Shown piece by piece: positions 3,528 through 48,642 of a stretch of DNA of 64,000 bases (position 1 is the first letter of the stretch; every line of letters starts with the position of its first letter). A program made the position numbers and the translations under genes. The notes below the pieces were generated by a model, which searched no databases, was not told the DNA's origin, and saw only the letters and a program-made list of their open reading frames with translations. Origin of the DNA: Dysidea avara (Eukaryota; Porifera; Demospongiae; Dictyoceratida; Dysideidae); assembly GCF_963678975.1 (NCBI RefSeq), contig NC_089272.1:58543574-58607573 (forward strand). The letters run 5' to 3'.

Positions 3528-6500
3528 CGCGCGCGCCAATAGTTTAAAAAGAGCCCCGGTAACAAGGTATTAGTTTGTTTGCATAACTACTGTAAGTTAT
3601 TTGCTACTAGAAACTTATTTAATGATGGTTGAAAATGTAGGAAATGTGGTAAGTCTTCACTCCTTAGTATGTATTGCCAATATGGATCTGGTACCGATAC
3701 CAGTAATATAGGCAGTGATACTACGTAATGTCAGTATTGGTACTTTTCTACTTTAGAGTGATTCTATTTCAAGATCGTCCTGAGAATTGCTGAGCATAGT
3801 TTTAGTGTTGTCTCATCTTCGCCTTGTAGGGATATTCAAAGTTTTGCTTATTCTGTAATTCTGCCGTTCCATTATTCCATATTTTGCCTTTTCTCACCTA
3901 ATTGTTCATTGTCAAGTGACTCAAGTCGTCTTTTCATTGCACTTGAGAACTGCAGAATTTTGGCTCAAATATTTCAAAAGAAATTTACAGTGACCAGCAC
4001 TGAAGTTTTAAAATAAATCATCTTCCTCTATAATTCAAGGTTGTTTTAAGTAAATTCTGCATCGTGATTTTCTGAATGATTGGGGTTATAATTATGATTG
4101 ACCAGCCAACATTTTGGCTGCATTGAAGTAAGAGCAATGTCACCAGGTGATATTTGTACCTTCATGAGACTACACCTAATTGAGACTACAGTACGCATAG
4201 TATGCTTTAAAGTTTTGTCGCTAATGAGGTACTTAGACCCTTTATTTACATATTACTAAATTGGTCAGCTTTTAGCAACTCTTGCTGTATATACTTTAAA
4301 AATTGATGGAACATGTACATATAGTTTTTTTGTTTAAAATCTGGGATTTGCAAGGCATACTGGTATATATTGTTTGAGTCATGTAACGTAGTACACATTA
4401 CATATTTTATTTACATATATAGATGTTGGTTATTAATATTAGAGGCAGTTCATCGTTACTATGAATCCCGTAGACGAAAGCTAGTTACTGATGTGAGGCC
4501 TGACAGGGTGGCTATTAAAGAAGCCAATGACAGAACACCAAAGTGAGGAGCAGGCAGAAAGCGGTTAGTTTTCTTTTGGTGCATCAATAAATTTCAATAT
4601 TGTGGAAACAGTTGTATGATCGTCGCAAGAAGCTATGCGCGACGAAAGAAGAATAGAAAAGATGGAGAGAAATCATACCAGCCTATATGACTGAAGAGAG
4701 TGATGACGATGAAGGCTCTTACAGAACACATTCACCATCGTGGCGATCTACTGGTTAGTTACATTACATGAATGGTATTTCTTACAACAAGGCTGATTTT
4801 ATGGTCTCCCTGATAGAACTAGAAGACTTCATTCAAGAGCTGGATCAAAGGTGGACAGTGAAAAGTGTATTGAAGAAGCCCAGAGTAGTGTCTACTCCAC
4901 TAGTGTGTGAGGCCCCGAGGGGAGCTCCAGCTTGGGCAGTGAGAGCACGGTCAATAAGTCCTACTGTGTGTTAACTTATAATTAGTATAGTGTAACAGAT
5001 GATACATTTTAGGTAACAACTGCTTATCATGATGCACCACCAAATGGTCACCAGTTGCAATCCTCCTATACTGAAGTGGAACAGGTGTGTACACAGCTAA
5101 GCTGTATCATTTGTGATTTTATTTTGACCACTACAGGTTGAAGATCCAGCTGTTGCTAGTGGTGGTACAGGTCATGATCAGATGCACGCAGCTTATGATT
5201 CTGAGGTACGTACTACGTATGACATAGCAAATACCTCTTCTGATGGCTATTATCTATTTTCAGAGCCTCACACACTATCCTCTGCCGCAAGATGATTATT
5301 CAGATGTATGTGTGTACAGTATAAAAGTTCATATGTTTAGTTTAGCTGCACATTGCAAAGGGCTATTCACCTTCACCGGGCTATTGACCTTCACCGTACT
5401 ATGCTCGCAACATACAGCCTCCACAAGACCAGTACTATCTTCAGGTAAATTAACCTACAAAATCTTCCGTGTGATGTACCTTAACTGGTTGTATTACAGT
5501 TCAGTCAACGACCAGATAACAATGATCATTGCATTAACGTAAGTGTCAAAGTGTCGATTAGGCTTACATTTACATATTATTGATTTTGTAGTGCTATGAA
5601 GAATCATTGCCATCACAGCAGGTGAGTTGTTTGTGTATAATTTGTCATTACTGTAAATAATAAGCATTGCATACTGAATATTGGGTTATTTCAATGGGAT
5701 TGCTTTATACACTACCATCATGTTAACGTTTGAGAAGAAAGTTTGTTGATTGATACTTTGGCAATACAACAGCAAATCTAGGGTGTTTTGCTTGAAATGT
5801 TAAGATTGAGTTTGTGTGGTAAAAGCTTGGCTACATCCATACATTATTGATATGTGACCAAAAGCACAGCTAGTTTTGCAATTTTCTGAAACTTTTTATA
5901 ATAACTTCTTGGTTATATATAGAGAAAAACCGATGGCCTGGGATGTCCAAAGTTTTAGCCTTAGTTTTAGAAAGCAGCATTAGAGTGAAATAATGAATTT
6001 GTACATGTCTACAGTATGTGAAAAATAAGCCACAGAAGGTAACGTTGTGTAATCCATCATAACTCATGAAGGAATTGAAGCAAGCCGCTAGGACTTGGCT
6101 CCTTTCTTCCTTATGAAATTGAACACCTAGTAAGGTGTAGTGGCTGGGCGTCCTGCATGGTATTGGAAACCTTACAACTATGAAGGCAGTTGATAGCCCA
6201 CAAATATGCATCATAAGTTGGCCTATGGGACGTGCCTTGTACAAGTGTAGCCACAACCGTGTTGTTAATCCTTATTGTAGTACCTTTGTAACCATTTTCC
6301 ACTTATGCTAGCGGTTTGGGTGAATTTAGCAGTAGCTTGAAAGAAACGTCCAGCCCGCTATTTGAGACATTGTACAAAATTATATGTATATGCTAAATTA
6401 TTTATTTTTCCTTAGGGTCAGTATGCTACACCTCCAAATCTTGTAAGTAAATTTTTTGCTGTTGAAATAAGTGGTTATTTGGTGCATATTTCTAGGTACA

Positions 6501-18252: not shown

Positions 18253-21147
18253 CAGAGCTCAATATAATGGTTTTATTTTGATCTGTCAGATTAAAATGAG
18301 ATTTGACAGGTCATCAGTTAGAATTGCATAGGCCATAATTTTGAATGTGAAGGAAATGCCTTGTGATACCTTACAGTGTGCTAAGCACACTCCATGAGCC
18401 TTGTAGGGAAGTCTGGGGACATGCCCCCACCAGAAAAGTTTAAAGAATAGGTTGTACAGATATGCTATTTTAGTATATTTTAACTGTAAATAATTTATGC
18501 ACATACATAGATAACATGTTCTATTTATTTCCAATTGTTTTCAATAATTTTTAAACAACATTTTTATTTGATGTACACTATGTAATAAACCATGCTTAAA
18601 AACACTTTCGTTGTTGATTAATTTAATGCAATGAATTACTATTAAAAATGTATAAGAAGTGTAGATGTACAGTTAGTCACCATCAGATGATATGTCCGAG
18701 TCATCACTGGAACAAAACCACCGGTCCCATTCATCAAGAGTGAGTTTTTGTGTTTCACTATCTTCATCGGATTCTAGTTCATCTACAGTAGTGGAGGATG
18801 ACCTTGTAGTCTGTTCTCTTGACTTGTACTTCTTCCTGGCACTCTGTTGAGGTCTTCATTTGCACTCGCTTAGCCACAATTCAATTGCACTGTCAGCTGA
18901 AAATTCTGCTAATGTGGGCCCTTCAATGTATAATTCCAAAAGGTCATTCAGTGTGGATGTTTGGAGACTGTTTCTTTTGGTGCTTTTAAGGTATTTCAAA
19001 CTTGAAAAGATTGTTTGACTCTTGCATTAGAGAAAGGTAAGCTAAAAAGTAGCTTGCACAGCATCAAAACATTTGGCCACTTTGCTGAATCTGGACAAAC
19101 AAACAGATTGTACCACACCTTGCGATAGTCAGTACTCTCTAGTCTCTATTCCTAGGTAAGACCTGGCATACACCAAAGCATCCTCTATTTCATCTTGCGT
19201 GGACAGAACGCTGACATCTGTTGCCTCCAGTGGATCTCTAAAGCATGAACATAACAACTCAATGCTATCTTTAACATCCTGCAGTGAAGCATCATCATCA
19301 GTAGAGTCAATAGTTGGCCTCTTTACCCAGCTCTGTATGTCTAAAAAGGCTATTGTTGCCCTCAACACACCAGTGTCTGACCACTCTAGTCTTTCCTGAA
19401 TGGCTTTGTACAACCTGTCTAGGTCACCCAGAGCTTGCTTCTTGCAATATTCTAATGTGGCAACTGTGTAATTTTTAAGAGTTGCTCCTTGGTAACTGAC
19501 ACTACTTCCGTCACTGACAACCCTGTCTTGTACCAATTTGACAGTGGGCCACTCTGATGGGTCCTTTTTTCTTAATGATCTCAATGAGTTCACTGTCTTA
19601 AGAATTTGCTTGAGGCCGTCTACAATATCACAGTCTAATTTCTGCAAGCATAAACTAAGTATTGCTGGCCCCTTAAGAACCTCAACAAACATAGCACTTC
19701 CAAGCAAAAACTTGGCACGTGACCACTTCAGCAAGTATCTCTTTAGGCGAGCCCTGTCTTGAGATTTAAGTGAAGCATCTTCACATAGGGTAACTAGGTG
19801 AGAAAGGTAGGCACCAAATTGATCAATGATCCTTTGTAGAGCTTTTCGTTTGTGGTTTAGCCACCGAGAACCTTGTGCACGTACTGGTAGACAGCCATTC
19901 TCCTTAAAATCAAATACCTCTTTAAGATCTTCAACAATAGATTTTAATCCCCAAACCTTTTTAGGGGATTTCTCATACAAATAATATAGCCTTAGTAACA
20001 TTTCTTCAATTCTTTTAAACAGTGAGCTAACAAAACCATTCTTGGATGCTAGTTCCAAACGATGTGCAAAACACCAGCTCCAGTAAATCCATGGTAAACT
20101 ACAGCATAGATTTGCCTTGATGCTTGAATGTTGGGCAATATTTACTGATGCCCCATCAGTTCCTCCTCCTACTAAGATTGGGTTACATGCTAAGACGTTT
20201 GCTTGATCACATATATTCTCGATCCCCAATGTGTTTGAAAGTATTTCTCCCAGGCACTTCAGCAAGCCATCAGTATCTGTCTTGCATACTGTACCAACTG
20301 ACAAGAACCTGGCACAAGACTTGATCTCTCTACGGTGGTCATCTTGCTGACAGTACAATAACACTACAGCTTCATCTTCAACTTTTGCAACATCGGTGGT
20401 ACCATCCATTAGAAAGCTAAAGTAAGAGACTTTCTCCTTCAAAAACTCCATAAACGATGATCGTTGTGATGCAGCAATGAAGTGAGTGAAGCTTTTGCAG
20501 GATACATCATTATTATAAGTAGTACCCATATCAACTGCATGCCTACTTTCTAGTTGGTACAAAGGAGAGTACTTAGCAAACGGAATTCCTTCTTTAGCCA
20601 TGGTGAAAGACAAATCAAACTTGCGTCTTAGACGCTCGCGTGATTGGGCATCTAGCTTCATTAACAATCGTACAATGGGTGCAACAGACGTCAGCGGCTC
20701 GCCACTATCCTTCGCTTGGCCCATCTTCAAATAATTCATGGCGGCAGAATGCTGGCAACACGTCGCATGATCGACCACGTTACTTGTTCTATGGTTCGTG
20801 GAACCTTCTATCCATACCCGAGAAAAGTTTCGCTGGCCTGTGATCTTCCTTTCGTATCGTCGGCAGATTTCACACCAAAGAGCTGCCACGGTGGATTTAT
20901 CATTCTTCTCCGTATCGCACCGAAGCCAAGTAAGCGTCTGGTAATCAGCGTTGTACTGCTTCTGCCACTTTTCGAAAGTTCCGTGGGCGATTTGTCGCTT
21001 CTTCCGCTTCCCTTTATCCACTAAACCGCTAGCTGTTGCCGCACGTTTTTGAGCGGCCATTATTGACCGGTAAAACTTTATTACGAGCGGTCATGTGATG
21101 CGTGTGTCCGGATATTGACCGGTGACCGACGGTTATATTGAGCTCTG
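18253..21147 (-). mobile_element. hAT transposon (ZNF862-like), 2,895 bp
   Basis: Terminal repeats CAGAGCTCAATATAA (18,253-18,267) and TTATATTGAGCTCTG (21,133-21,147) are perfect. TAACAC flanks both sides (18,247-18,252 and 21,148-21,153). The duplicate segment has the empty site GCTAACACTATG at 62,131. The duplication is 6 bp perfect rather than the usual 8 bp for hAT. It encodes one transposase gene on the minus strand (next entry). Confidence 0.85.
18667..21060 (-). pseudogene. hAT-family transposase, ZNF862-like, frameshifted
   Basis: An open frame of 643 aa (21,060-19,129) starts MAAQKRAATASGL, followed by a basic stretch KGKRKKRQ. A BED/TTF-like zinc ligand set follows (C63, C66, H98, H104), then a DUF4371-type RNase H-like core with SFLMDGTTDVAKVEDEAV (first Asp) and GGGTDGASVNIA, and WCFAHRLELASKN. 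The frame is broken near 19,129 by 1 nt. The following frame gives DYRKVWYNLFVCPDSAKWPN and LPFSNARVKQ; after another 1-nt break comes LKSTKRNSLQTSTLNDLLEL, the hAT C-terminal dimerisation region. A TGA after WLSECK and an acidic tail end it near 18,667. Such proteins cut and paste DNA in the nucleus. With two frameshifts and a stop this copy should not make full transposase, although the long N-terminal ORF could still be translated. Confidence 0.9.
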
Positions 21148-21170: not shown

Positions 21171-22665
21171 AATTCAATTCAATTCAATTCAATTATTAGC
21201 TTTATAGTGCAATGTTACAGGTGTACATGGTTGTACATCAATAAAAGTGAGTTTGTATACAATTGCACTAAAGGTAATCTGATAAGTACCAGATCCCATA
21301 ACTTAAATTAAGTACTTATCATTACTTATATAATTACAATTAGCTGCTAAATGTATCAAAGTTAGGTGGCTTGGGGTGTTTGGAGCAGATGCTACAAGGA
21401 CATGTAAAATGGAAACTATGCTGGTTGTCTGGATAGAAGTTACTTATAAAATGCTGCCATAGGATTTTAGTTAGTTGAAATTTAATGGTAACTAAGGGTT
21501 GAGTTAGGTCAATTACTGGTAAGCTGTTGAAGGTTCGAGGAAGTCTGTTAAAGTAGAAGTTTCTTTGTTGATTAGATGATGTAAAAACATGTTCAAGTTT
21601 GTTACTGGAAGAAGACCTAGTAGAATGATGACAGAATTTGATGAAGGTCTGGATGTTGAAATGATCAGATGGATTTTGAATTGATTTTATGAAAAACAGA
21701 ATGTCACACTGGTCATAAATATACATCAATGGTAGTAGGTTGAGCTTTATAAGGCGAGTTTTATAATCAGAAACATAATCGTTGAGGATGTATTTGGTAG
21801 CTCGGCGCTGTATTCTTTCAAGAGCAGAGATATCTTGGATAAGGTGGGGATGCCACAATGGGGAACAATACAGGAGCTGAGACCTTACTAGTGCTATGTA
21901 CAGAGTTCTTTTAGTTGTAGTGTTAATAGAATGGCTGAATGTACGTCTAAGCAATCCTAGGGTTTGATAAGCTTTGGATGAAATGTGGTGATAGTGGTTT
22001 CTCCAGGACAGGTCAGTAGATAGAATGATACCAAGGTCACGATGGGTGTTACTAGATATTATTGAGGAATCGTCAATGTTGTAAGAAGTTGGGAACTTTG
22101 TATTAAAGGAGAGGTGAATAAATTTCTTAGTGTTAAAAGATAGGTTTGAGTCTTGAGACCAGTCAAATAAGGAGTTGAGGTCATCCTGGAGTTTGATGGA
22201 ATCAAGTAGTTCAAAAATGAGTTTGTAGCATTTAGTGTCATCTGCAAAAGATAAAGCATTGGAGTGATGAATGGATAGATACAAATCGTTGATGAAAACT
22301 AAGAACAAAAGTGGGCCAAGGATGCTCCCCTGGGGCACACCTGATAAAACTGGAAGTAGAGTTGAGTAGGAACCATTGAGTCGTACACATTGGTATCTAT
22401 TATAGAGATATGATTTGAACCACCACCACAGGTAGCCAGTAATGCCAATTTGCCACAATTTTAAGAGTAGTTCATTGTGAGGAACTCGGTCGAAAGCTTT
22501 GGAAAAATCTAAATAGATTACGTCTGTTTGGGTTTTGTGCTCATAAATATCTTTGAGGAAGATAAGAAGTTGTTGCAAAGTTGAGCGCCCTTTCATGAAT
22601 CCAAATTGTGAGGTAGAGATACGACTAGAAATAGATTTTGTAACTTTTTCATGAATCAAAAATAT
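21171..22665 (-). mobile_element. 5'-truncated non-LTR retrotransposon (CR1/L2/Jockey-like)
   Basis: The insertion is absent from the duplicate segment (62,145-62,165 reads straight through CAGTAGCTAC to AAAAATG). It ends with a (AATTC)n tail at 21,171-21,197, the hallmark of a non-LTR 3' end on the minus strand. It starts abruptly inside the reverse transcriptase at about 22,665, so it is a 5'-truncated copy. Confidence 0.85.
21340..22659 (-). CDS. reverse transcriptase, C-terminal part of LINE ORF2
   Basis: An uninterrupted 439-aa frame. Motifs: FGFMKGRST (20-27), YLDFSKAFDRVPH (49-61), GVPQGSILGPLLF (107-119), the catalytic FADD (138-141), YLIVL-like RSQLLYCSPLW, and a C-terminal Cys cluster CPCSICSK near the end. 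This is the fingers/palm of non-LTR reverse transcriptase, which copies its own RNA at a nicked target. The endonuclease domain and N-terminus are missing because of 5' truncation, so the first Met is just the first ATG within the domain. The frame is intact, suggesting a fairly young insertion. Confidence 0.85.
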   Translation of the reverse strand: MIHEKVTKSISSRISTSQFGFMKGRSTLQQLLIFLKDIYEHKTQTDVIYLDFSKAFDRVPHNELLLKLWQIGITGYLWWWFKSYLYNRYQCVRLNGSYSTLLPVLSGVPQGSILGPLLFLVFINDLYLSIHHSNALSFADDTKCYKLIFELLDSIKLQDDLNSLFDWSQDSNLSFNTKKFIHLSFNTKFPTSYNIDDSSIISSNTHRDLGIILSTDLSWRNHYHHISSKAYQTLGLLRRTFSHSINTTTKRTLYIALVRSQLLYCSPLWHPHLIQDISALERIQRRATKYILNDYVSDYKTRLIKLNLLPLMYIYDQCDILFFIKSIQNPSDHFNIQTFIKFCHHSTRSSSSNKLEHVFTSSNQQRNFYFNRLPRTFNSLPVIDLTQPLVTIKFQLTKILWQHFISNFYPDNQHSFHFTCPCSICSKHPKPPNFDTFSS

Positions 22666-22667
22666 TA

Positions 22668-24130
22668 GTACATCAGAAATTAAAACCTCACAGCATTCAC
22701 CTCCTTAATAAGACCACCTCATTATAGTGACCATGTAAACTAGGTCCCAAGTATAGCTAAGGTTTACTTCATGACCTTAGTAAAATAGACCACCTCAGTA
22801 TAGTGACCATGGCAAATAGGTCCCAAACACAGCAAAGGTGATTTCATAACCTCATAATAAGACCACCTCCATACTATCAGGAGAGAAGTCGGATGTGACC
22901 AAATATGCAACTTTTGTTCTTCACTGTGAAAAAAGAGGGATATAAGATGGTGTTTCCGGTGGCTTATTGAATACAAAAAAGCTTGGTATAACCTGTATTA
23001 TACTAACAATCTCTTGTAAGACTTCAGTTAATGTGTTAAATATACTGAAACCATATATGTGATGGTATAGTGTGGACATTATATTAGATAAGCTATTTCA
23101 GGTAATGTGATAAGTAAACTGAAACCATATATGCAATAGTATAGTATGGATTATACTAAAGTATAAAATTAGTATAATACAGGATTTATATTAAGGCTTA
23201 TTTGTATTCAATAAGCCACTGGAAATACCATATTATATCCCACTTTTTGCACAGTGCTTGTTTCCAGCTTTATCAGCTGTTTCACTTGTGTGTCTGTTCC
23301 TTTGCTAGTGTCACCTAGTGTTCAAGCTACAGTTGACAGTGGCACTACAGTGGAGGAGGATACAGTGACATCATATACAGCAATTGGAATACCTTGACCC
23401 ACAATCAAATGGTACAAACTAAGTATATTAGTTTGTGCCAGTAAATTGAATATACTGAGTATTGTACACATGTCATACAAATTTTCAAGATAAGCAAACT
23501 TAAATGACTTGGCTGTCCACGAAGCATTTATAGTCAGTATCTTTGTTAGTAATTATTTTGATAGACAATGAGATTTCTGTCATGTAAATATGTGTACTTC
23601 AAATCAATTACTAAAGTTCTCAAAGAAGTAATTTCATTTTTAAGCTCATCCATTAACACTGTTCAATTACTCTAATAGAACATACACTATCTGTGATAGA
23701 ATGGAAAAGATACTCTAATTAAACAGTCACCTTCAAACAATAGATTTTATACTTAATAGTGTATTAGTGATTTGCAATATATATCTATCATATAGTATGA
23801 TAGTACTGTATAGTAGGGACCACAAAGGGTTGGGCATGGCCCACAAAAACATCACCAAAAAACCAGCAACAATTTTCTCTTATGATGATCAAGCAGTATT
23901 GGTTAGGTAAAACTAAGCCCAAACAAGCCTTCAGATCAACCTGAAATGCTTTCAACAAGTTACTATGGAATTTAAAAAAACTTTTCAACTGAATTTTTGA
24001 AGATTAACTGACTGACTGACTGATATCTTCAGACGATAACGGCTAGCTAAGTCTATGGGCTTGATCTTTTGTTTGACGTTGATTTAGCCAGACACATGCC
24101 TTTCGGACATACCACAGTACGGTACAAACC
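22668..24130. repeat. duplicated segment, block A2
   Basis: Matches 62,162-63,300 in the same orientation, starting ATTAGTACATCAGAAA and running through CCTCACAGCATTCACCTC to the GACTGACTGACTG tract. It has a 335-bp MITE (22,922-23,256) that the other copy lacks. It includes a possible exon remnant near 23,312-23,397 (SVQATVDSGTTVEED, then stop). Confidence 0.85.
22922..23256. mobile_element. MITE with ~55-bp inverted ends
   Basis: Left CACTGTGAAAAAAGAGGGAT and right (reverse complement) CACTGTGCAAAAAGTGGGAT; the match continues through GTGGCTTATTGAATACAAA. Absent from the duplicate at ~62,413. No coding capacity. Confidence 0.75.
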
Positions 24131-41843: not shown

Positions 41844-42099
41844 TATTATGTAGAACTGCCCTGTAGTCATAAAGGAAGTGTGAATATAATTGGCTGTATG
41901 AATAGCATGTTATAGATGTGCATGCAATTTAGCAACATGTGCAGAGAGTCAGAGTGTTTCCCTTCTGATATCCTAACACTTGCTTAACCTATAATTTCTG
42001 TATCATAAGTGAAGTCTGAAAGTTTCAGATTTACGTTATATGTGTAAAACAATAGTGAAATTGAATGATGCACCTAACATCTTCTAGCACAGGTTATTA

Positions 42100-42245
42100 A
42101 GTAGATTGTACGTATGGAGTGTGATAGAAGTATTTTATGGACTAAAGTGATGGCAAACAGTGAAAACATCAAGATCATAGCCTTAGTGGTTAGCAAGTAA
42201 CACTTGTGATGTGGGAAGGCTGTAATGCCTAAAACTGCCCTGTAG
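42100..42245. repeat. dispersed repeat, also at 41,070-41,220 and 60,190-60,330
   Basis: The shared text includes GTACGTATGGAGT, then GGACTAAAGTG, AACAGTGAAAA, ATCAAGAT and GCCTTAG, then AACACTTGTGATGTGGGA. The 60-kb copy is part of the composite insertion in block B3. Confidence 0.6.
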
Positions 42246-42500
42246 TATATGGTTGCATAAAGGAAGTGTGAATACAATTGGCTGTATGAATAGCATTTTA
42301 TAGATGTGCATACAATTCAGCAACATGTGCAAAGGCTCTCTTCTGTGTCTCCCTTCTGATAACCTCTTGCTCTACCAATTTTCCCACAAATTCCCTTATC
42401 ATAAGTAAGGTCTGAAAGTTTCAGATGTACATTATATTAAATTATTATAAACAATAATGAAATTGTATGATACACCTAACATCTAACAAAGGTTACAAGT

Positions 42501-42608
42501 TAGTCTCGCTTGGCCAGACCGCTATTTCAGAGCAGGGGCTTATCGATTAAAGATTATAAGTGCCCGCGCAGGAAAGGGTCTGGTCCAGTTCGCATAGGCA
42601 AGTCGTCC
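42501..42608 (+). repeat. left terminal inverted repeat
   Basis: Contains an inner hairpin: GGGGCTTATCGATTAAAG faces ATTATAAGTGCCC, itself nested in AGACC...GGGTCT, so each terminal repeat can fold on itself. Open reading through it (MARPLFQSRGLS) also appears in the right repeat and is not a gene. Confidence 0.85.
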
Positions 42609-42736
42609 TCAGCACCTTCGTCAACACTTGGAGTGCTGATCATGGGCACGTCATCAGACATTTACAATTATCCAATAACTTGTCCCATGCGCTTGTATTT
42701 GAAAGTGTAATAAAGGCGGGTAGTGTGCAAGAGACC

Positions 42737-44165
42737 ATGACAGATTCTCCTGTGATGGAACGAGTAACAGAACCGGCGGAAAAATCTATCGATGATTCGA
42801 TTACGCGGGCTTTAGAAGCAATGTCACTTAATCCACTGAAGCCTAAACAGTTGGAAGCAGTCCGTACTTTTATGTCTGGGAGAGACACGTTTGTGTCGCT
42901 CCCAACTGGTTACGGAAAATCTGTTATCTATGCTATTCTTCCACTTGCATTTGATTATTTTTTGGGTATGTATGCAGCAAATTTTTATAGTTGACTTACC
43001 ATTATTCTGTGTTCAACAGGAAGATCTGGTAGCCTTGCTGTTGTTGTTAGCCCCTTAACCTCACTAATGATGGACCAGAGACAGAGATTCGCACCTACGG
43101 GGATATCAGTTGAGTTTGTTGGAGAGGCTCAGACAGACAATGATGCATGTACCAAAGTCGTGAATGGTGAGGTGCAGCTAGTATATATCAGCCCAGAAAG
43201 TATGTTGAATACCAAGCGATACTGGCACATGTTTCAAAGCGACTCATACCAAAATAAAATGATAGCATTTGTAGTGGATGAGGCACACTGTGTAAAGATG
43301 TGGTAAGTTTCATCTTATTAATTGAATGCTATTCTATTCTGTGACTTCCAGGGGTGATAACTTCCGTGTAGCCTTTGCAAAGCTAGGAACACTACGCAGT
43401 ATTTTACCAACTAGTGTCAATGTGATGGCTTTGACAGCTACTGCAACTCAAGAAATTTTGAAATGCGTTGAAAATCGTCTTGACTTGAAGGATGTAGTAC
43501 TTATTGGGATACACTCAGGAAGGCCTAACATTAAGTTCATTGTCAAACCATCAATTGACTTAAATGATCTGGCTGCCATAGTTTCTGCTGAACTTGTTGA
43601 GTTACGAACCAATACACCAAAAACAGTTCTGTTTTGTAGATCACACTTGCAGTGTGTTAAACTATTGGTTGAATTGAAGAAACTCTTGAAAGACAAAATT
43701 ACTGAACCACCCGGCATGCCAGTAACAAATATTCACTACAGGCTCATTGATAATTTCACATCAGGATCAAAGACAGAGGCGAGAGAGGTAATCCTGCAAG
43801 AATTTTGTAAAAGGGATACCAGTCTCAGGTTGATCATAGCAACCAATGCATTTGGACTAGGGTTTGATTGTGCCGACATTACCAGAATCATACACTGGGG
43901 ATCACCTAATACACTGGAAGAATTAGCACAACAAACAGGGAGGGCTGGTAGAGATGGGTCTCATTCAGAAGCTATTTTATACAAGAAGTCCGGTAAACAT
44001 ACTTCAAGAGCAATGAAAACTTATGTTGGGAATGTTTCAGTCTGTCGGAGAAAATTATTATTTCAAGGTTTCCTTTTTGGCTCAGACAATAGTTGCTCAA
44101 TTACTGCTTGCCGTTGTTGTGATCTTTGTGCTCCACTTTGTAATTGCCATAATTGTACTATGTAG
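42737..44165 (+). CDS. RecQ-like superfamily II DNA helicase, transposon-borne
   Basis: Three exons: 42,737-42,965, 43,020-43,302 and 43,352-44,165, phases 1 and 2, all GT-AG, giving 441 aa with no stop. Motifs: Q-like LKPKQLEAV (34-42), Walker A LPTGYGKS (55-62), Ia VVSPLTSLMMDQ (85-96), YISPES, DEAH (163-166), MALTATAT (196-203), TVLFCRS (262-268), ATNAFGLGFDC (334-344) and QQTGRAGRDG (364-373). A C-terminal Cys cluster (CRRKLL ... CRCCDLC ... CNCHNC) resembles the RecQ zinc-binding region; HRDC and winged helix are absent, so it is a compact form. It should unwind DNA with ATP, presumably helping excision or repair of the element. The ATG at 42,737 is preferred; an in-frame ATG at 42,560 lies in the terminal repeat. 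All catalytic motifs are intact, so purifying selection or a recent arrival is likely. Confidence 0.88.
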
Positions 44166-44418
44166 CGCACTGCACAATCATGTAATTTTACTTTAAAGTA
44201 TTAAAATCAAAATTTCATGGAAAAAAAAATTACACAGTATGTACATAGTTTAGATAGCAGAGAAAGTCTTTGCATGTACTAGCAGGAGGCACTCCTGGTA
44301 TTAGTGTATGTACGTATTTGCATTGATGATTTTTTCTTTTACCCAGTCAGTAATTTTATCCCGATTGACATCCAGAAGCAACGGCTGTTGCTTGTAGCTA
44401 CTGTAGTTCTGTGCATTG

Positions 44419-47400
44419 TCATGTCCTTTCATTCTTTAACAGACGTACAATAGCATCCAAGTCTTTTTTAAACGATGGATATGTGTGATATTCCTTATTG
44501 ACTGATATAGACAGTTCCTTTTCAAACTGGGAGCAAACATGGCTCACTGGACCAAGTGATTTGGCCACCCTCTGAATAGCACTTGGGTAAATATTTGAGC
44601 CAGCACTTCTTATACATCCTTTTAGCTGTTTATTTAAATGCTCCATATGTAGATCACATGGAACGTTGTGACCAGGTTTGCCATGAGTGTTGATCGTCCT
44701 ACTCCACTTCAGTTCACACAATTTATGGGTTGAGAGTAATAGTGACTGCAAAGTCAAATTGAATGCTTCTTTGGCATAGTTGTGGTGGTTTTCTAATTTA
44801 AAAACCAACAACAAAAACTTCCAATATAACAATATTCGAGTACTGTCTCCTTCTTTAACGGCATCGTGAAAACCATACCACAACAATCCAAGTGTAAATA
44901 GGTCGATAGTATACAAATTAGTAGTTGACAGGGAAGGTATGTCACCAGACCCACCAACTGTCACAGAGCCAGGGTCTGTTGTGGAACTAGTAACTGTTGT
45001 AGACATGGAAGCAGAAGCTGGTACGGTAACAAGATTCATAATGGATGCTGTGGAGGTTGTGGAACCAGGAACTGTTGTGGAATCATCATCTGTGGAGGGA
45101 GAATTAGCTGTTGCAGGACCAGGAGCTGTTTCATTACTTGTTAATAAAGTTATTTTGACCCACTTTGACACAATTGCCTTAGCCGTTTCTACACAGGATT
45201 GACTCTGGGAATTGATGGTTTTGGCTGCAGTAATGACATATCCACTGAGTACTACTACTAAAAAATCTTCAAAAGCCTTCATGCTCTTTGAAGGATCTGC
45301 TCCAACTGACGATTGACTTAACAAATTTCTTAGCTGGTACAACGTTCCTTTGTCACAAGATGAATTTGTTGAGTATAGTCTGTCCCAGATCACCTGCATT
45401 CGATGAGGTAATATCAACAAATATGCAATAGTTACTAACCTTAACTAGGGTCATTCTTGCATGCCAATCTGCTATTGCAGGAACAAAACCTTCTAATCTA
45501 TCGATCGATAGATTATGAAAAGATCGCAACACCATAGCACCCCTGGTTCTCTCTACTGTCATCTGGTCTCCATAAAACTACAATGGCACTAGTCTAGGGT
45601 ATCCTGAATTTTCATTGGAAGAATTGCTGCCTTCCTGTGGAACGTACTGACTCAAGCTGCCCACTATATGGCACATGTCTCCTAGGTTTGCCTCATTCTT
45701 TAAAATGACACCAAGAGGAACCTAAATAATTTAATAATAATAATTATTTTATTGTGTTCAGTGTGTGACCATACCACATTGGACTGCCGAGACATTTCTT
45801 CAGAGTGCTCTGAGAGTATATGCCAAGTTACCATGTCAATCTGATCTTTGTATTTTGGCATGTGTCTCACAAGAATCCTGCAAAGATATAATACACATCA
45901 CCTACATCAGAAGTACACACTAAATTTATACTATCAACTAATGCAACAGTTCTAGATACTATACAGTGGGTTATTTCTTGGGTATTTTTATTTTTTATGA
46001 AGAAAAATTTCTGATAAATGGCAAGATCTTCCCACTCAAATTTTATGAAGAAAAATTTCTGATAAATGTCCCACTCCAAAAAAAATTTGCTATGTGGTAT
46101 AAATTCTTTGCAACATTTATGTTCTGCAAAGGGCTAATAATATGTACCTTGACGTAAGGATTTTAAAATCACGCATCAAATTATCAAGATCTTCTTGGGT
46201 TGGTAAAAAACTCTCAACAGATAGAACAGCTGAAGGCTTGGCATCAGATAAAGAAGAAACATCAACACGGTTCTTAGCTGCGTATGAGTGAAAATAATGC
46301 AATGACTTGGTCTGTCGATCTTGCCTTTGGTAACTTGGTCGAAAGTTCTTATCTATATTATCACCAATTATTGTAAAGCCAAGTGGACCACTTTCACTGT
46401 TAGTATCATGGGATGGCTGCAAGGTCGAACATGGTGAAGAGACAACATTTAATGGTCTTTGTAGCATGGTGTCATCTGTTGATGCATTGCTTCTCAATGG
46501 TTGATTTGGACAAATTGAGTCAGTACGGTTGCAGTGGGTGTTGCTATTGTCCATTAGCAGACACTCAACATTGCTGACTGACACTAGGGAAGAACTCTCT
46601 GCAGTAATGTCAACATTGCTGGCTGACACTGGGGAAGGATTCTGACCTTGCAATGTGGCGGTGTCCATTACAATGCAATTAGAATCACTGGCTGACACTA
46701 GAGAAGGATTCTGACCTTGTACCATGGTAGTGTCCATTACAATGCAATCAACATCACTGGCTGACACTAGGGAAGGACTCTCCGCAGTAGTGTCGACATT
46801 GCTGGCTGATGTTAGGTAGGGGTTCTGGACTTGAACCATGGGTATTTCACCCTTAGTTGGCATAGTAGTTGCAACCTCCTCTTCCTCCTCCTCACCGTCA
46901 GAAAAGAAAGACACATCACTAGGGGCACCAATGCTTTCTGTGTCACTGTCACCACCATCACCATCATCAAACAACTCAGCAATTTCGTCCATCCAATCAA
47001 ATTGCATACCAACATTCTCTGTTTCCTATAAAAATTGATCAGTAACCATATCATGCAAATTTTTAATTAAGTAACCTTAAACACTTCTTTCATCTCATTG
47101 GCCCATTCTTTTACTGGTACATCATGCTTTCCAGTGAGTTGATCAATGATCTCATAAGTGGAAGATTGTGACTGCAGATCATGAGTGGCTGAAAGTACTG
47201 GTACATCTACGGTAAAAATTTAAACACAGTGTAAATCAATAAGCACAGAATATGTGTTTGCTAGCAGCATTCCCATAAAATAGCACTGAAATCATTCGTT
47301 GCATTAGGCTCATGTGCTTGCAATTCTTTTTAAGGAGCATGCATATGACAAAAGTAATGAAGATGTTGCTAGCTTGAGGTAATATCTGCCTCATAAATCC

Positions 47401-48316
47401 GATGAGCCATGGCATTCTTGCAACAAATTCGAGCCATAATGCATTCCAGCTGAAGTTGTTTAATTCATCGTGCTTGCTTCTTAGTATTGATGGTTGATTG
47501 GTAGAACAAATATTCAATATTTCATATTTCACTTTCCCTGCGACTGCATTTAACGAATGTCTATTTGATAGATTGAAAACACCCGTAGCAGCAGATTTGA
47601 ATCGTTTCATTGCACATGACTTCACAACATCTCCTCTATTTGGTGTCATCTTCATATTCCTTAAACCAGATTTGAAATCAATTGTAACCTACACAATACC
47701 AAACAGACTGGCTAAATTAATTGCACTCCAAATCAATTTAGGATACACAACAGTATAAACAAGAGATCAACAACATACATTTGCGACTCACAAACACGTC
47801 AGGTTTTTCATCCTGATCATGACAAGCTATCCGACGAGACTTCTGAGAAGGATCGCGATGTGGAGTTTGATGATTATCACCAGATGACTCAGCAATGCCT
47901 CCGCCTTCTACCCTCTCCACCTGGGCCTCTACTGGTGCACTCTCTGTTGGTACCTCTTCAGACTCTGATAGAACCCTTTTCCTCGATTCAAGGCTTGGGC
48001 AGAGTACAGAGAGGTATTGTAGTACATTACTGATGCATCCGTTTAAATCTGTCTCTAGTCTTCTTGCTCTCTTCAGGAGTCTGCTGCAAGTAGCACAAAG
48101 GGAAGCGTCTGGATCATTCAGTTCCGAAATAAACGAGTAGTCAAGTCTTGGATGCTTCTTCTTTAAAATGGGAAATAGGATAGCTTTCTCATTTTTACAA
48201 GCGGCACCATGAAAACGCTTTCGAGTACTATTGTCACTTTCAGTTTGTAATTTCTTCAAGCACAGACAACACTTAATCTCCTGATCTCGTGGCTTGGCTT
48301 TCCTCATTCCCGCCAT
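44419..48316 (-). CDS. Academ-type transposase (DUF6589-like), 7 exons, one nonsense codon
   Basis: Exons on the minus strand: 48,316-47,792, 47,688-47,247, 47,206-47,076, 47,025-46,148, 45,877-45,775, 45,721-45,440, 45,393-44,419; total 3,336 nt, with all phases consistent. N-terminal zinc ligands C17, C19 or C16, H36, C40, C74, C77 (CCLCLKK, HGAAC, CATC); then MSLMQRMISVLFYGNAASKH; an acidic linker with degenerate repeats (SLVSASD, IVMDT, GQNPS); the core FTIIGDNID (Asp about 588), SLHYFHSYAAKNRVD, GDQMTVERTRGA (Asp about 745), ADWHARM, and GHNVPCDLHMEHLNKQLKG (Asp/Glu about 1034/1038). A DDE-type catalytic set at 588, 745 and 1038 is my inference. A TAG at 45,578-45,580 (codon 741) precedes FYGDQ, so full-length protein needs readthrough or another copy. 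The exon 2-3 junction is the least certain. Confidence 0.8.
46003..46077. repeat. two-copy direct repeat in transposase intron 4
   Basis: TTTTATGAAGAAAAATTTCTGATAAATG occurs twice (starts 45,991 and 46,041), separated by GCAAGATCTTCCCACTCAAA. It lies in the intron between 46,148 and 45,877. Confidence 0.85.
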
Positions 48317-48441
48317 TTCGCTTCAGAGAACTTACCGAATGTACGCTCATATGCGACATTCAAACGGGTTGGCCAATGACGTAGTGATCGTTGTGATGAC
48401 GTGGCCCCAATCAACACCCAACACCACGTTGTTGATTCTGT

Positions 48442-48549
48442 GAACGACTTGCCTATGCGAACTGGACCAGACCCTTTTCTGCGCGGGCGCTTATAATCTT
48501 TAATCGATAAGCCCCTGCGCTGAAATAGCGGTCTGGCCACGCGAGACTA
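48442..48549 (-). repeat. right terminal inverted repeat
   Basis: Reverse complement of the left repeat with only a few differences. It includes GCGCTTATAATC and the inner hairpin. Confidence 0.85.
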
Positions 48550-48642
48550 GGTTACAAGTGTGGATGTGTGTGGTTACAAGATGACTAGAATCACTCCAGT
48601 AAATATAAAAATAAAAGTTAGCTAATACAACAACTGTTAGTT

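What the first reader, a model, noticed from the sequence alone, without database searches (positions are those of the whole stretch)
42491..48559. Nearly complete helicase-carrying transposon with 10-bp target duplication
The sequence shows ~108-bp inverted ends, a perfect 10-bp duplication GGTTACAAGT, an intact three-exon RecQ-like helicase and a seven-exon transposase of the GDNID/LHYFHSY/GDQxTVER type, convergent inside one unit. Carriage of a RecQ-type helicase by a cut-and-paste element is unusual. The combination best fits the AcademH lineage (recalled from memory). How the helicase contributes to transposition is not established as far as I know.
Basis: partly seen in the sequence, partly recalled or inferred. 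Interest (0 to 1): 0.88.

Follow-up and report, generated by a model that had tools for sequence, protein, structure and literature searches.

The report
Helicase-carrying jumping gene (AcademH transposon)
This is a copy of a known kind of jumping gene, AcademH, that carries its own RecQ-type DNA-unwinding enzyme; this copy still has the helicase gene but its transposase gene is broken, and relatives with the same gene pair lie elsewhere in the same animal genome.

Summary
The element is real, at 42501-48549, with 112-nt inverted ends (106 identical) and a perfect 10-bp duplication, GGTTACAAGT. Four paralogous empty sites carry that 10-mer once, which shows the insertion. The helicase gene (three exons, 441 aa) is open. 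The transposase gene has the seven-exon layout but is broken in this copy: lost splice donor, frameshift, in-frame TAG, small deletion. A 98.8% identical copy on C2 has an open 1151-aa transposase but a damaged helicase. The proteins match RecQ-type helicases and Pfam DUF6589. Capped searches gave 85 helicase clusters in this genome; 71 have a DUF6589 hit within 1.5 kb, 69 of them convergent. Of 19 insertions, 14 fit a 9-bp TSD and 3, the window included, fit 10 bp, the range printed for AcademH. Helicase and transposase distances correlate across 8 families (r = 0.88), so the pair is probably inherited together. Verdict: a new member of AcademH. The helicase's role is unproven; I favour donor-gap repair, with unwinding at the transposition complex as main rival.

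The parts
42491..42500 (.). left target site duplication GGTTACAAGT
   Evidence: perfect 10-bp match; single copy in the 4 empty sites read
42501..42612 (+). left terminal inverted repeat, begins TAGTCTCGC
   Evidence: 112 nt, 95% complementary to 48438-48549
42737..42965 (+). helicase exon 1 (start codon to Walker A region)
   Evidence: open frame, GT donor; Pfam DEAD 1.2e-05, just under its cut-off
43020..43302 (+). helicase exon 2 (DEAH box)
   Evidence: AG/GT sites, frame kept; Pfam DEAD 1.6e-07
43352..44165 (+). helicase exon 3 (second RecA domain, Cys-rich C-terminus, stop)
   Evidence: Pfam Helicase_C 9.8e-13; RecQ_Zn_bind 0.0017, under its cut-off; open to stop
44419..45393 (-). transposase exon 7 (third catalytic motif DLHMEHLN at 44632-44655); the window copy has an 8-nt deletion near 44419
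   Evidence: Pfam DUF6589 1e-22 on the ORF 44419-45444; three-copy alignment; motif position
45440..45721 (-). transposase exon 6 (GDQMTVER); in-frame TAG at 45578-45580 in the window copy
   Evidence: Pfam DUF6589 6e-08
45775..45877 (-). transposase exon 5
   Evidence: splice sites present
46148..47025 (-). transposase exon 4 (GDNID and LHYFHSY motifs)
47076..47206 (-). transposase exon 3; 1-nt frameshift in the window copy
47254..47688 (-). transposase exon 2; splice donor lost in the window copy
47792..48316 (-). transposase exon 1 (start codon, Cys/His-rich N-terminus)
   Evidence: no Pfam match at E up to 1
48438..48549 (-). right terminal inverted repeat, ends GCGAGACTA
48550..48559 (.). 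right target site duplication GGTTACAAGT

Best explanation
This is a decayed copy of an AcademH DNA transposon in an animal genome. Shown here: it inserted as a unit with a 10-bp duplication; it has long inverted ends starting TAGTCTCGC; it carries two convergent genes, a RecQ-type helicase near the left end and a DUF6589 transposase with D/D/E motifs near the right end; the pair recurs together in many families of this genome. Inferred from DDE transposases in general: the transposase binds the inverted ends, cuts the element out and joins it to staggered cuts 9-10 bp apart in the target. The two start codons lie 236 and 233 nt from their ends, so the near-identical ends may hold promoters for both genes (inferred). 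The helicase is most likely an element-borne accessory that works after or during cutting: RecQ proteins unwind D-loops and promote long repair synthesis, so it would favour copying the element back into the donor gap from a sister chromatid and so raise copy number (about 40% likely). Unwinding at the transposon ends or the target is the main alternative (about 30%). This copy could move only with transposase made by another copy. The confidence below is for the AcademH identity, not for the helicase's role.
For: Ends and TSD. Empty sites. Gene models. Pfam DUF6589 and helicase domains. RecQ-family matches in PDB: 1oyw (E. coli RecQ, name recalled) 141 bits, WRN 140, BLM 139, RECQ1 130, RECQ5 100. 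Copies and deletion derivatives with these ends. The 20-nt terminus at 4210 places with up to 2 mismatches, 0 in the reversed-pattern control; other families share it. Linkage: 71 of 85 helicase clusters have a DUF6589 hit within 1.5 kb, 69 convergent. TSD 9 bp beside identical TAGTCT-type ends in 14 of 20 related loci. Distance correlation r = 0.88, reached by 1 of 5000 permutations. AcademH TSD 9 or 10 bp in print (PMC10045372 passage). Loss of BLM shortens repair synthesis at P-element gaps in flies (PMC8951532 passages).
Against: The primary AcademH paper is not held, so its alignment and reference families were not compared. Splice joints are predictions. 14 of 85 helicase clusters and 24 of 95 DUF6589 clusters had no partner in the lists; the searches score only part of the candidates, so this may or may not be real. 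Nothing here tests the helicase's biochemical role; in the fly assay HELQ and FANCM, which I do not count as RecQ, are needed too. Derivatives without the helicase gene have multiplied, so its action is either supplied in trans or dispensable.
Confidence: 0.9

Rival explanations
1. Same element, other helicase role: the helicase acts on the transposition complex itself, opening the ends or target DNA, and this is why AcademH makes 9-10-bp duplications while AcademX, with a nuclease, makes 3-4-bp ones.
For: The link between TSD length and accessory enzyme is proposed in PMC10045372 (passage). TSDs are 9 bp in the 14 readable helicase-bearing loci of other families and 9 or 10 bp in this one.
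Against: No AcademX element was examined here, so the contrast was not tested. TSD length in DDE transposons is normally set by transposase geometry (general knowledge). Derivatives lacking the helicase gene also show 9-10 bp, but this does not discriminate, as helicase could come in trans.
Confidence: 0.3
2. Same element, but the helicase serves something other than transposition chemistry or repair, such as evading host control or aiding replication.
For: Short derivatives lacking it have multiplied.
Against: The pair recurs at many loci and helicase dN/dS between two families is 0.12, with dS near saturation, so some function is kept; these data do not say which.
Confidence: 0.2
3. A Kolobok element with a RecQ helicase (KolobokH or the like).
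For: KolobokH carries a RecQ helicase, and one red-alga Kolobok encodes RecQ on the complementary strand (PMC9587614 passage), so the opposite-strand layout alone does not exclude it.
Against: The transposase matches DUF6589. The TSD is 9-10 bp, not TTAA (TTAA for Kolobok is recalled). KolobokH itself is known only from fungi and this genome has wnt genes.
Confidence: 0.02
4. A host RecQ gene that happens to lie beside or inside a transposon, captured once in this copy.
For: The helicase belongs to the RecQ family; one element family, L065, is hardly closer to it (37%) than host L072 is (36%), and in the tree the two host genes join the L065 branch.
Against: The other six families are 46-53% identical to it. 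A convergent helicase-DUF6589 pair recurs at 69 clusters. The two distance matrices correlate.
Confidence: 0.02

Closest known systems
AcademH (Academ superfamily)
   Same: transposase plus helicase, TSD 9 or 10 bp (PMC10045372 passage); reported from animals and fungi (title of Kojima 2020 in the reference lists seen)
   Different: no difference found in the tested features; the primary paper and Repbase entries could not be compared
AcademX
   Same: same superfamily (PMC10045372 passage)
   Different: 3-4-bp TSD and a nuclease instead of a helicase; here 9-10 bp and a helicase
KolobokH
   Same: carries a RecQ helicase
   Different: [quoted passage not shown] a red-alga Kolobok has RecQ on the other strand, as here
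Host RecQ helicases (BLM/WRN/RECQ1 type)
   Same: shared helicase motifs
   Different: the element protein ends after a Cys-rich segment with no RQC match in its exon ORFs; host genes L072 and L073 are 36 and 33% identical

Membership tests
AcademH | Academ-type DDE transposase (DUF6589; its link to Academ is recalled) | tested here: met
   Pfam DUF6589 1e-22 and 6e-08 on two exon ORFs; D/D/E motifs recur in related loci
AcademH | element-encoded superfamily II helicase | tested here: met
   Pfam DEAD and Helicase_C; RecQ matches in PDB; 441-aa open gene
AcademH | TSD of 9 or 10 bp | tested here: met
   window 10 bp; of 19 insertions of this family 14 fit 9 bp with at most 2 mismatches (10 of them perfect), 3 fit 10 bp with at most 1, 2 unclear
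AcademH | terminal inverted repeats (as a defining trait recalled) | tested here: met
   112 nt, 95%
AcademH | transposase groups with AcademH rather than AcademX in a tree | not testable with these tools
   no reference Academ sequences held; primary paper not held
AcademH | host is an animal or fungus | tested here: met
   27 wnt-family matches in this genome; wnt as a metazoan marker is recalled, and the 14 control genomes (0 matches) say little because those named are prokaryotes
KolobokH | TTAA target duplication (recalled) | tested here: not met
   TSD GGTTACAAGT; other copies 9-10 bp
KolobokH | RecQ helicase encoded downstream of the transposase domain | tested here: not met
   here a separate gene on the opposite strand; a red-alga Kolobok also has it on the other strand
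Host RecQ gene | closer to host RecQ genes than to element helicases | tested here: not met
   36 and 33% to host L072 and L073; 46-53% to six element families and 37% to the seventh
Host RecQ gene | RQC domain (recalled as typical of several host RecQ proteins) | tested here: not met
   no RQC match in the exon ORFs at E up to 1; a genome search for PF09382 did not complete

The most novel reading that the evidence does not exclude
The RecQ-type helicase is a co-inherited, functionally kept transposition factor of AcademH: it either copies the element back into the donor gap or shapes the 9-10-bp insertion geometry. This genome, with at least 8 diverged families, a set of near-identical recent copies and thousands of shared ends, would make that directly testable.
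Probability: 0.35. Interest if true: 0.6.

Novelty: new member of a known kind. Interest (0 to 1): 0.36.

Why it matters
AcademH is already described, so the window copy by itself adds a family. In the passages I could read, the role of its helicase is a suggestion, not a test. The genome around this copy adds material: many families with the helicase gene nearly always facing the transposase gene (69 of 71 linked clusters), correlated divergence of the two proteins, a very recent expansion, and TSDs of 9 and 10 bp within one family with an empty-site proof. That would allow a direct test of an accessory helicase in a eukaryotic DDE transposon.

Tried and rejected
Rejected: KolobokH (TSD, transposase family); a captured host RecQ (identity, recurrence); matching flanks by chance (empty sites, copies). 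A further GGTTACAAG at 48572-48580, 12 nt after the right duplication, looked like a possible excision footprint; 3 of the 4 empty sites read have it exactly and the fourth with one extra base, so it belongs to the host repeat.

Led nowhere: AlphaFold of the helicase exon-3 ORF alone gave mean pLDDT 35.5 and was not used. A genome search for the RQC family was unanswered four times. The AcademH paper is not held under either identifier. DUF6589 is named in no held paper. Codon-position counts between the three full copies were too few to tell; dN/dS of the decayed copies L017 and L018 was 0.65 and 0.60. In dN/dS between families, dS was saturated for three of the four other comparisons' genes (L062-L069 transposase, L062-L071 helicase and transposase).

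Full report
Observation. The unit at 42501-48549 is bounded by inverted repeats of 112 nt (106 identical) and by GGTTACAAGT on both sides. Joining the flanks and searching the genome gave 8 places on C1 that match most or all of the joined sequence across the junction, and 2 on C2 that match from shortly before it. Four of the C1 places were read, and all four carry GGTTACAAGT once. The insertion and its 10-bp duplication are therefore shown directly, not only inferred from matching flanks.

Helicase. Three exons (42737-42965, 43020-43302, 43352-44165) give 441 aa without a stop. Pfam finds DEAD on two exon ORFs (one just under its cut-off), Helicase_C, and RecQ_Zn_bind under its cut-off. The best PDB relatives are 1oyw (E. 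coli RecQ, name recalled), WRN, BLM and RECQ1 at 130-141 bits, with RECQ4 and RECQ5 at about 100. The protein stops after a Cys-rich segment and its exon ORFs show no RQC match. A similar CRR...CxCCDxC ending is visible in the ORFs printed for related loci (L069 gave no ORF there).

Transposase. The seven-exon layout is right, but this copy is broken. Aligned with copies on C2 (98.8% identical) and C11 (94.5%), the window copy has lost the exon-2 splice donor, has a 1-nt frameshift in exon 3, an in-frame TAG in exon 6 and an 8-nt deletion near the end. The C2 copy reads through seven exons as 1151 aa, but its helicase exon 3 has a 19-nt deletion. C11 has several indels in both genes. So none of the three full copies examined keeps both genes open. 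Pfam gives DUF6589 on two window exon ORFs and on the first 800 residues of the C2 protein. In the 20 related loci read, the first motif (GDN or IDN) is covered and kept in 19 (not covered in L071), the second (GDQ) in 20 and the third (EHLN) in 20, one of these (L055) in a damaged stretch. These 20 loci are about 7 families, several of them near-identical copies.

Copies and derivatives. The two end-searches, which scored 40 of 599 and 40 of 741 candidates, found three full-length copies, partial copies, and many derivatives of about 374 bp made of the left 174 and right 202 nt, with a 2-nt overlap at the junction in the two examined (L021, L027). The same hit borders in most rows point to one founding deletion that then multiplied, most simply with transposase supplied in trans. 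Of 19 insertions with both ends, 14 fit a 9-bp TSD with at most 2 mismatches (10 perfect), 3 fit 10 bp (the window with 0, L019 and L022 with 1), and 2 are unclear (L028, L036). Dropped before this count: L037-L045, which share their flank with L033 and so stand for the same insertion inside a larger repeat, and L020, L029 and L046-L051, with only one sound end. The 20-nt terminus occurs at 2119 + 2091 places with up to 2 mismatches, and at none for the reversed pattern; it is shared by other families, since one listed facing pair (C1:8228549 and 8234067) encloses another family's helicase, so this is not a copy number of the window's family. Of the first 100 exact places listed, 27 facing pairs lie within 10 kb, 24 of them under 1 kb.

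Relatives. A helicase search gave 132 matches, with 95 of 508 candidates scored; a DUF6589 search gave 111, with 102 of 249 scored. Grouped by strand within 3 kb these are 85 and 95 clusters. 71 of 85 helicase clusters have a DUF6589 hit within 1.5 kb, median gap 291 bp; 69 are convergent and 2 are in the same direction, of which C15:1511446 also has a convergent DUF6589 hit on its other side. 14 helicase and 24 DUF6589 clusters had no partner in the lists. At least one of the 24 (C6:39902216) has a RecQ_Zn_bind match just downstream on the other strand, so the candidate limit explains some. I fetched 20 of the 85 helicase clusters at 9.9 kb, chosen before the DUF6589 list was in hand; all 20 contain the convergent pair. 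14 of 20 show a perfect 9-bp TSD beside identical TAGTCT-type ends; L066 fits 9 bp when its end is placed at TAGTC; five (L057, L064, L067, L068, L071) were unclear. Five copies of one family (L052, L053, L054, L056, L058) are 99.8-99.9% identical with five different TSDs, which points to very recent movement; L055 and L057 of the same family were not in that comparison.

Co-inheritance and selection. Over 8 families, helicase and transposase distances correlate with r = 0.88; 1 of 5000 permutations reached it. The distances use alignments anchored on one query, so they are rough. The two trees share the L062/L069 pair at full support and differ at weakly supported nodes, such as the place of the window family and L059; the two host genes join the L065 branch, so with two host genes only, the tree does not prove that element helicases form one clade. 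Helicase dN/dS between L062 and L069 is 0.12 with dS 1.9, near saturation; the transposase dS was saturated. The window helicase is 46-53% identical to six of the 7 other families and 37% to L065, against 36 and 33% to two host RecQ genes.

Family. PMC10045372 (passages seen) states that AcademH makes 9 or 10 bp TSDs and AcademX 3 or 4, and suggests the difference is tied to helicase against nuclease. PMC10799480 (passages) names DEAD and Helicase_C domains for AcademH, KolobokH or Helitron. PMC9587614 (passages) describes RecQ in KolobokH and on the complementary strand of one red-alga Kolobok. The defining paper (Kojima 2020) is cited there but not held; anything of its content beyond these passages is recall, as is the link from DUF6589 to Academ. 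The genome has 27 wnt matches and is taken to be an animal; the species is not identified.

Mechanism. Shown: insertion as a unit with 10-bp duplication, paired convergent genes, multiplied derivatives without the genes, correlated divergence of the two proteins. Inferred: cutting and joining by the DDE transposase; promoters in the inverted ends (start codons 236 and 233 nt from the ends); helicase action in donor-gap repair (favoured) or at the transposition complex. Support for the first is by analogy: in flies, loss of BLM, a RecQ helicase, shortens repair synthesis at P-element gaps, and so does loss of HELQ (PMC8951532 passages). No result here decides between them.

Literature searches. 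No title or abstract start in their listings, and no passage I read, reports a test of what the AcademH helicase does. Most subscription papers and the primary AcademH paper are outside that library, so this is no claim that none exists.

Noticed in passing
window 41868-42334: Two 79-nt copies of a host repeat 388 nt apart (94% alike) just left of the element; the insertion lies in a repeat with 8 largely complete empty places on C1 between 58.6 and 64.3 Mb.
   Followed up: partly
window 48572-48580: A further GGTTACAAG 12 nt after the right duplication; exact in 3 of 4 empty sites read and with one extra base in the fourth, so it predates the insertion.
   Followed up: yes
L033, L037-L045: Ten derivatives of 372-381 bp share the same flank TTACCCACT (in either orientation), so a derivative was amplified inside a larger repeat.
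   Followed up: partly
L052, L053, L054, L056, L058: Five copies of an AcademH-like family are 99.8-99.9% identical with five different 9-bp TSDs: very recent activity.
   Followed up: partly
window 21340-22704: ORF of 454 aa with a reverse transcriptase domain (RVT_1, 9.5e-24), probably a retroelement piece.
   Followed up: no
window 19129-21090: ORF of 653 aa with a zf-C17orf113 match just under its cut-off.
   Followed up: no
G000 C1:8549563-8550465: DUF6589 match in an open frame of 1745 aa with no helicase hit within 10 kb in the capped list; an intron-poor relative or another lineage.
   Followed up: no
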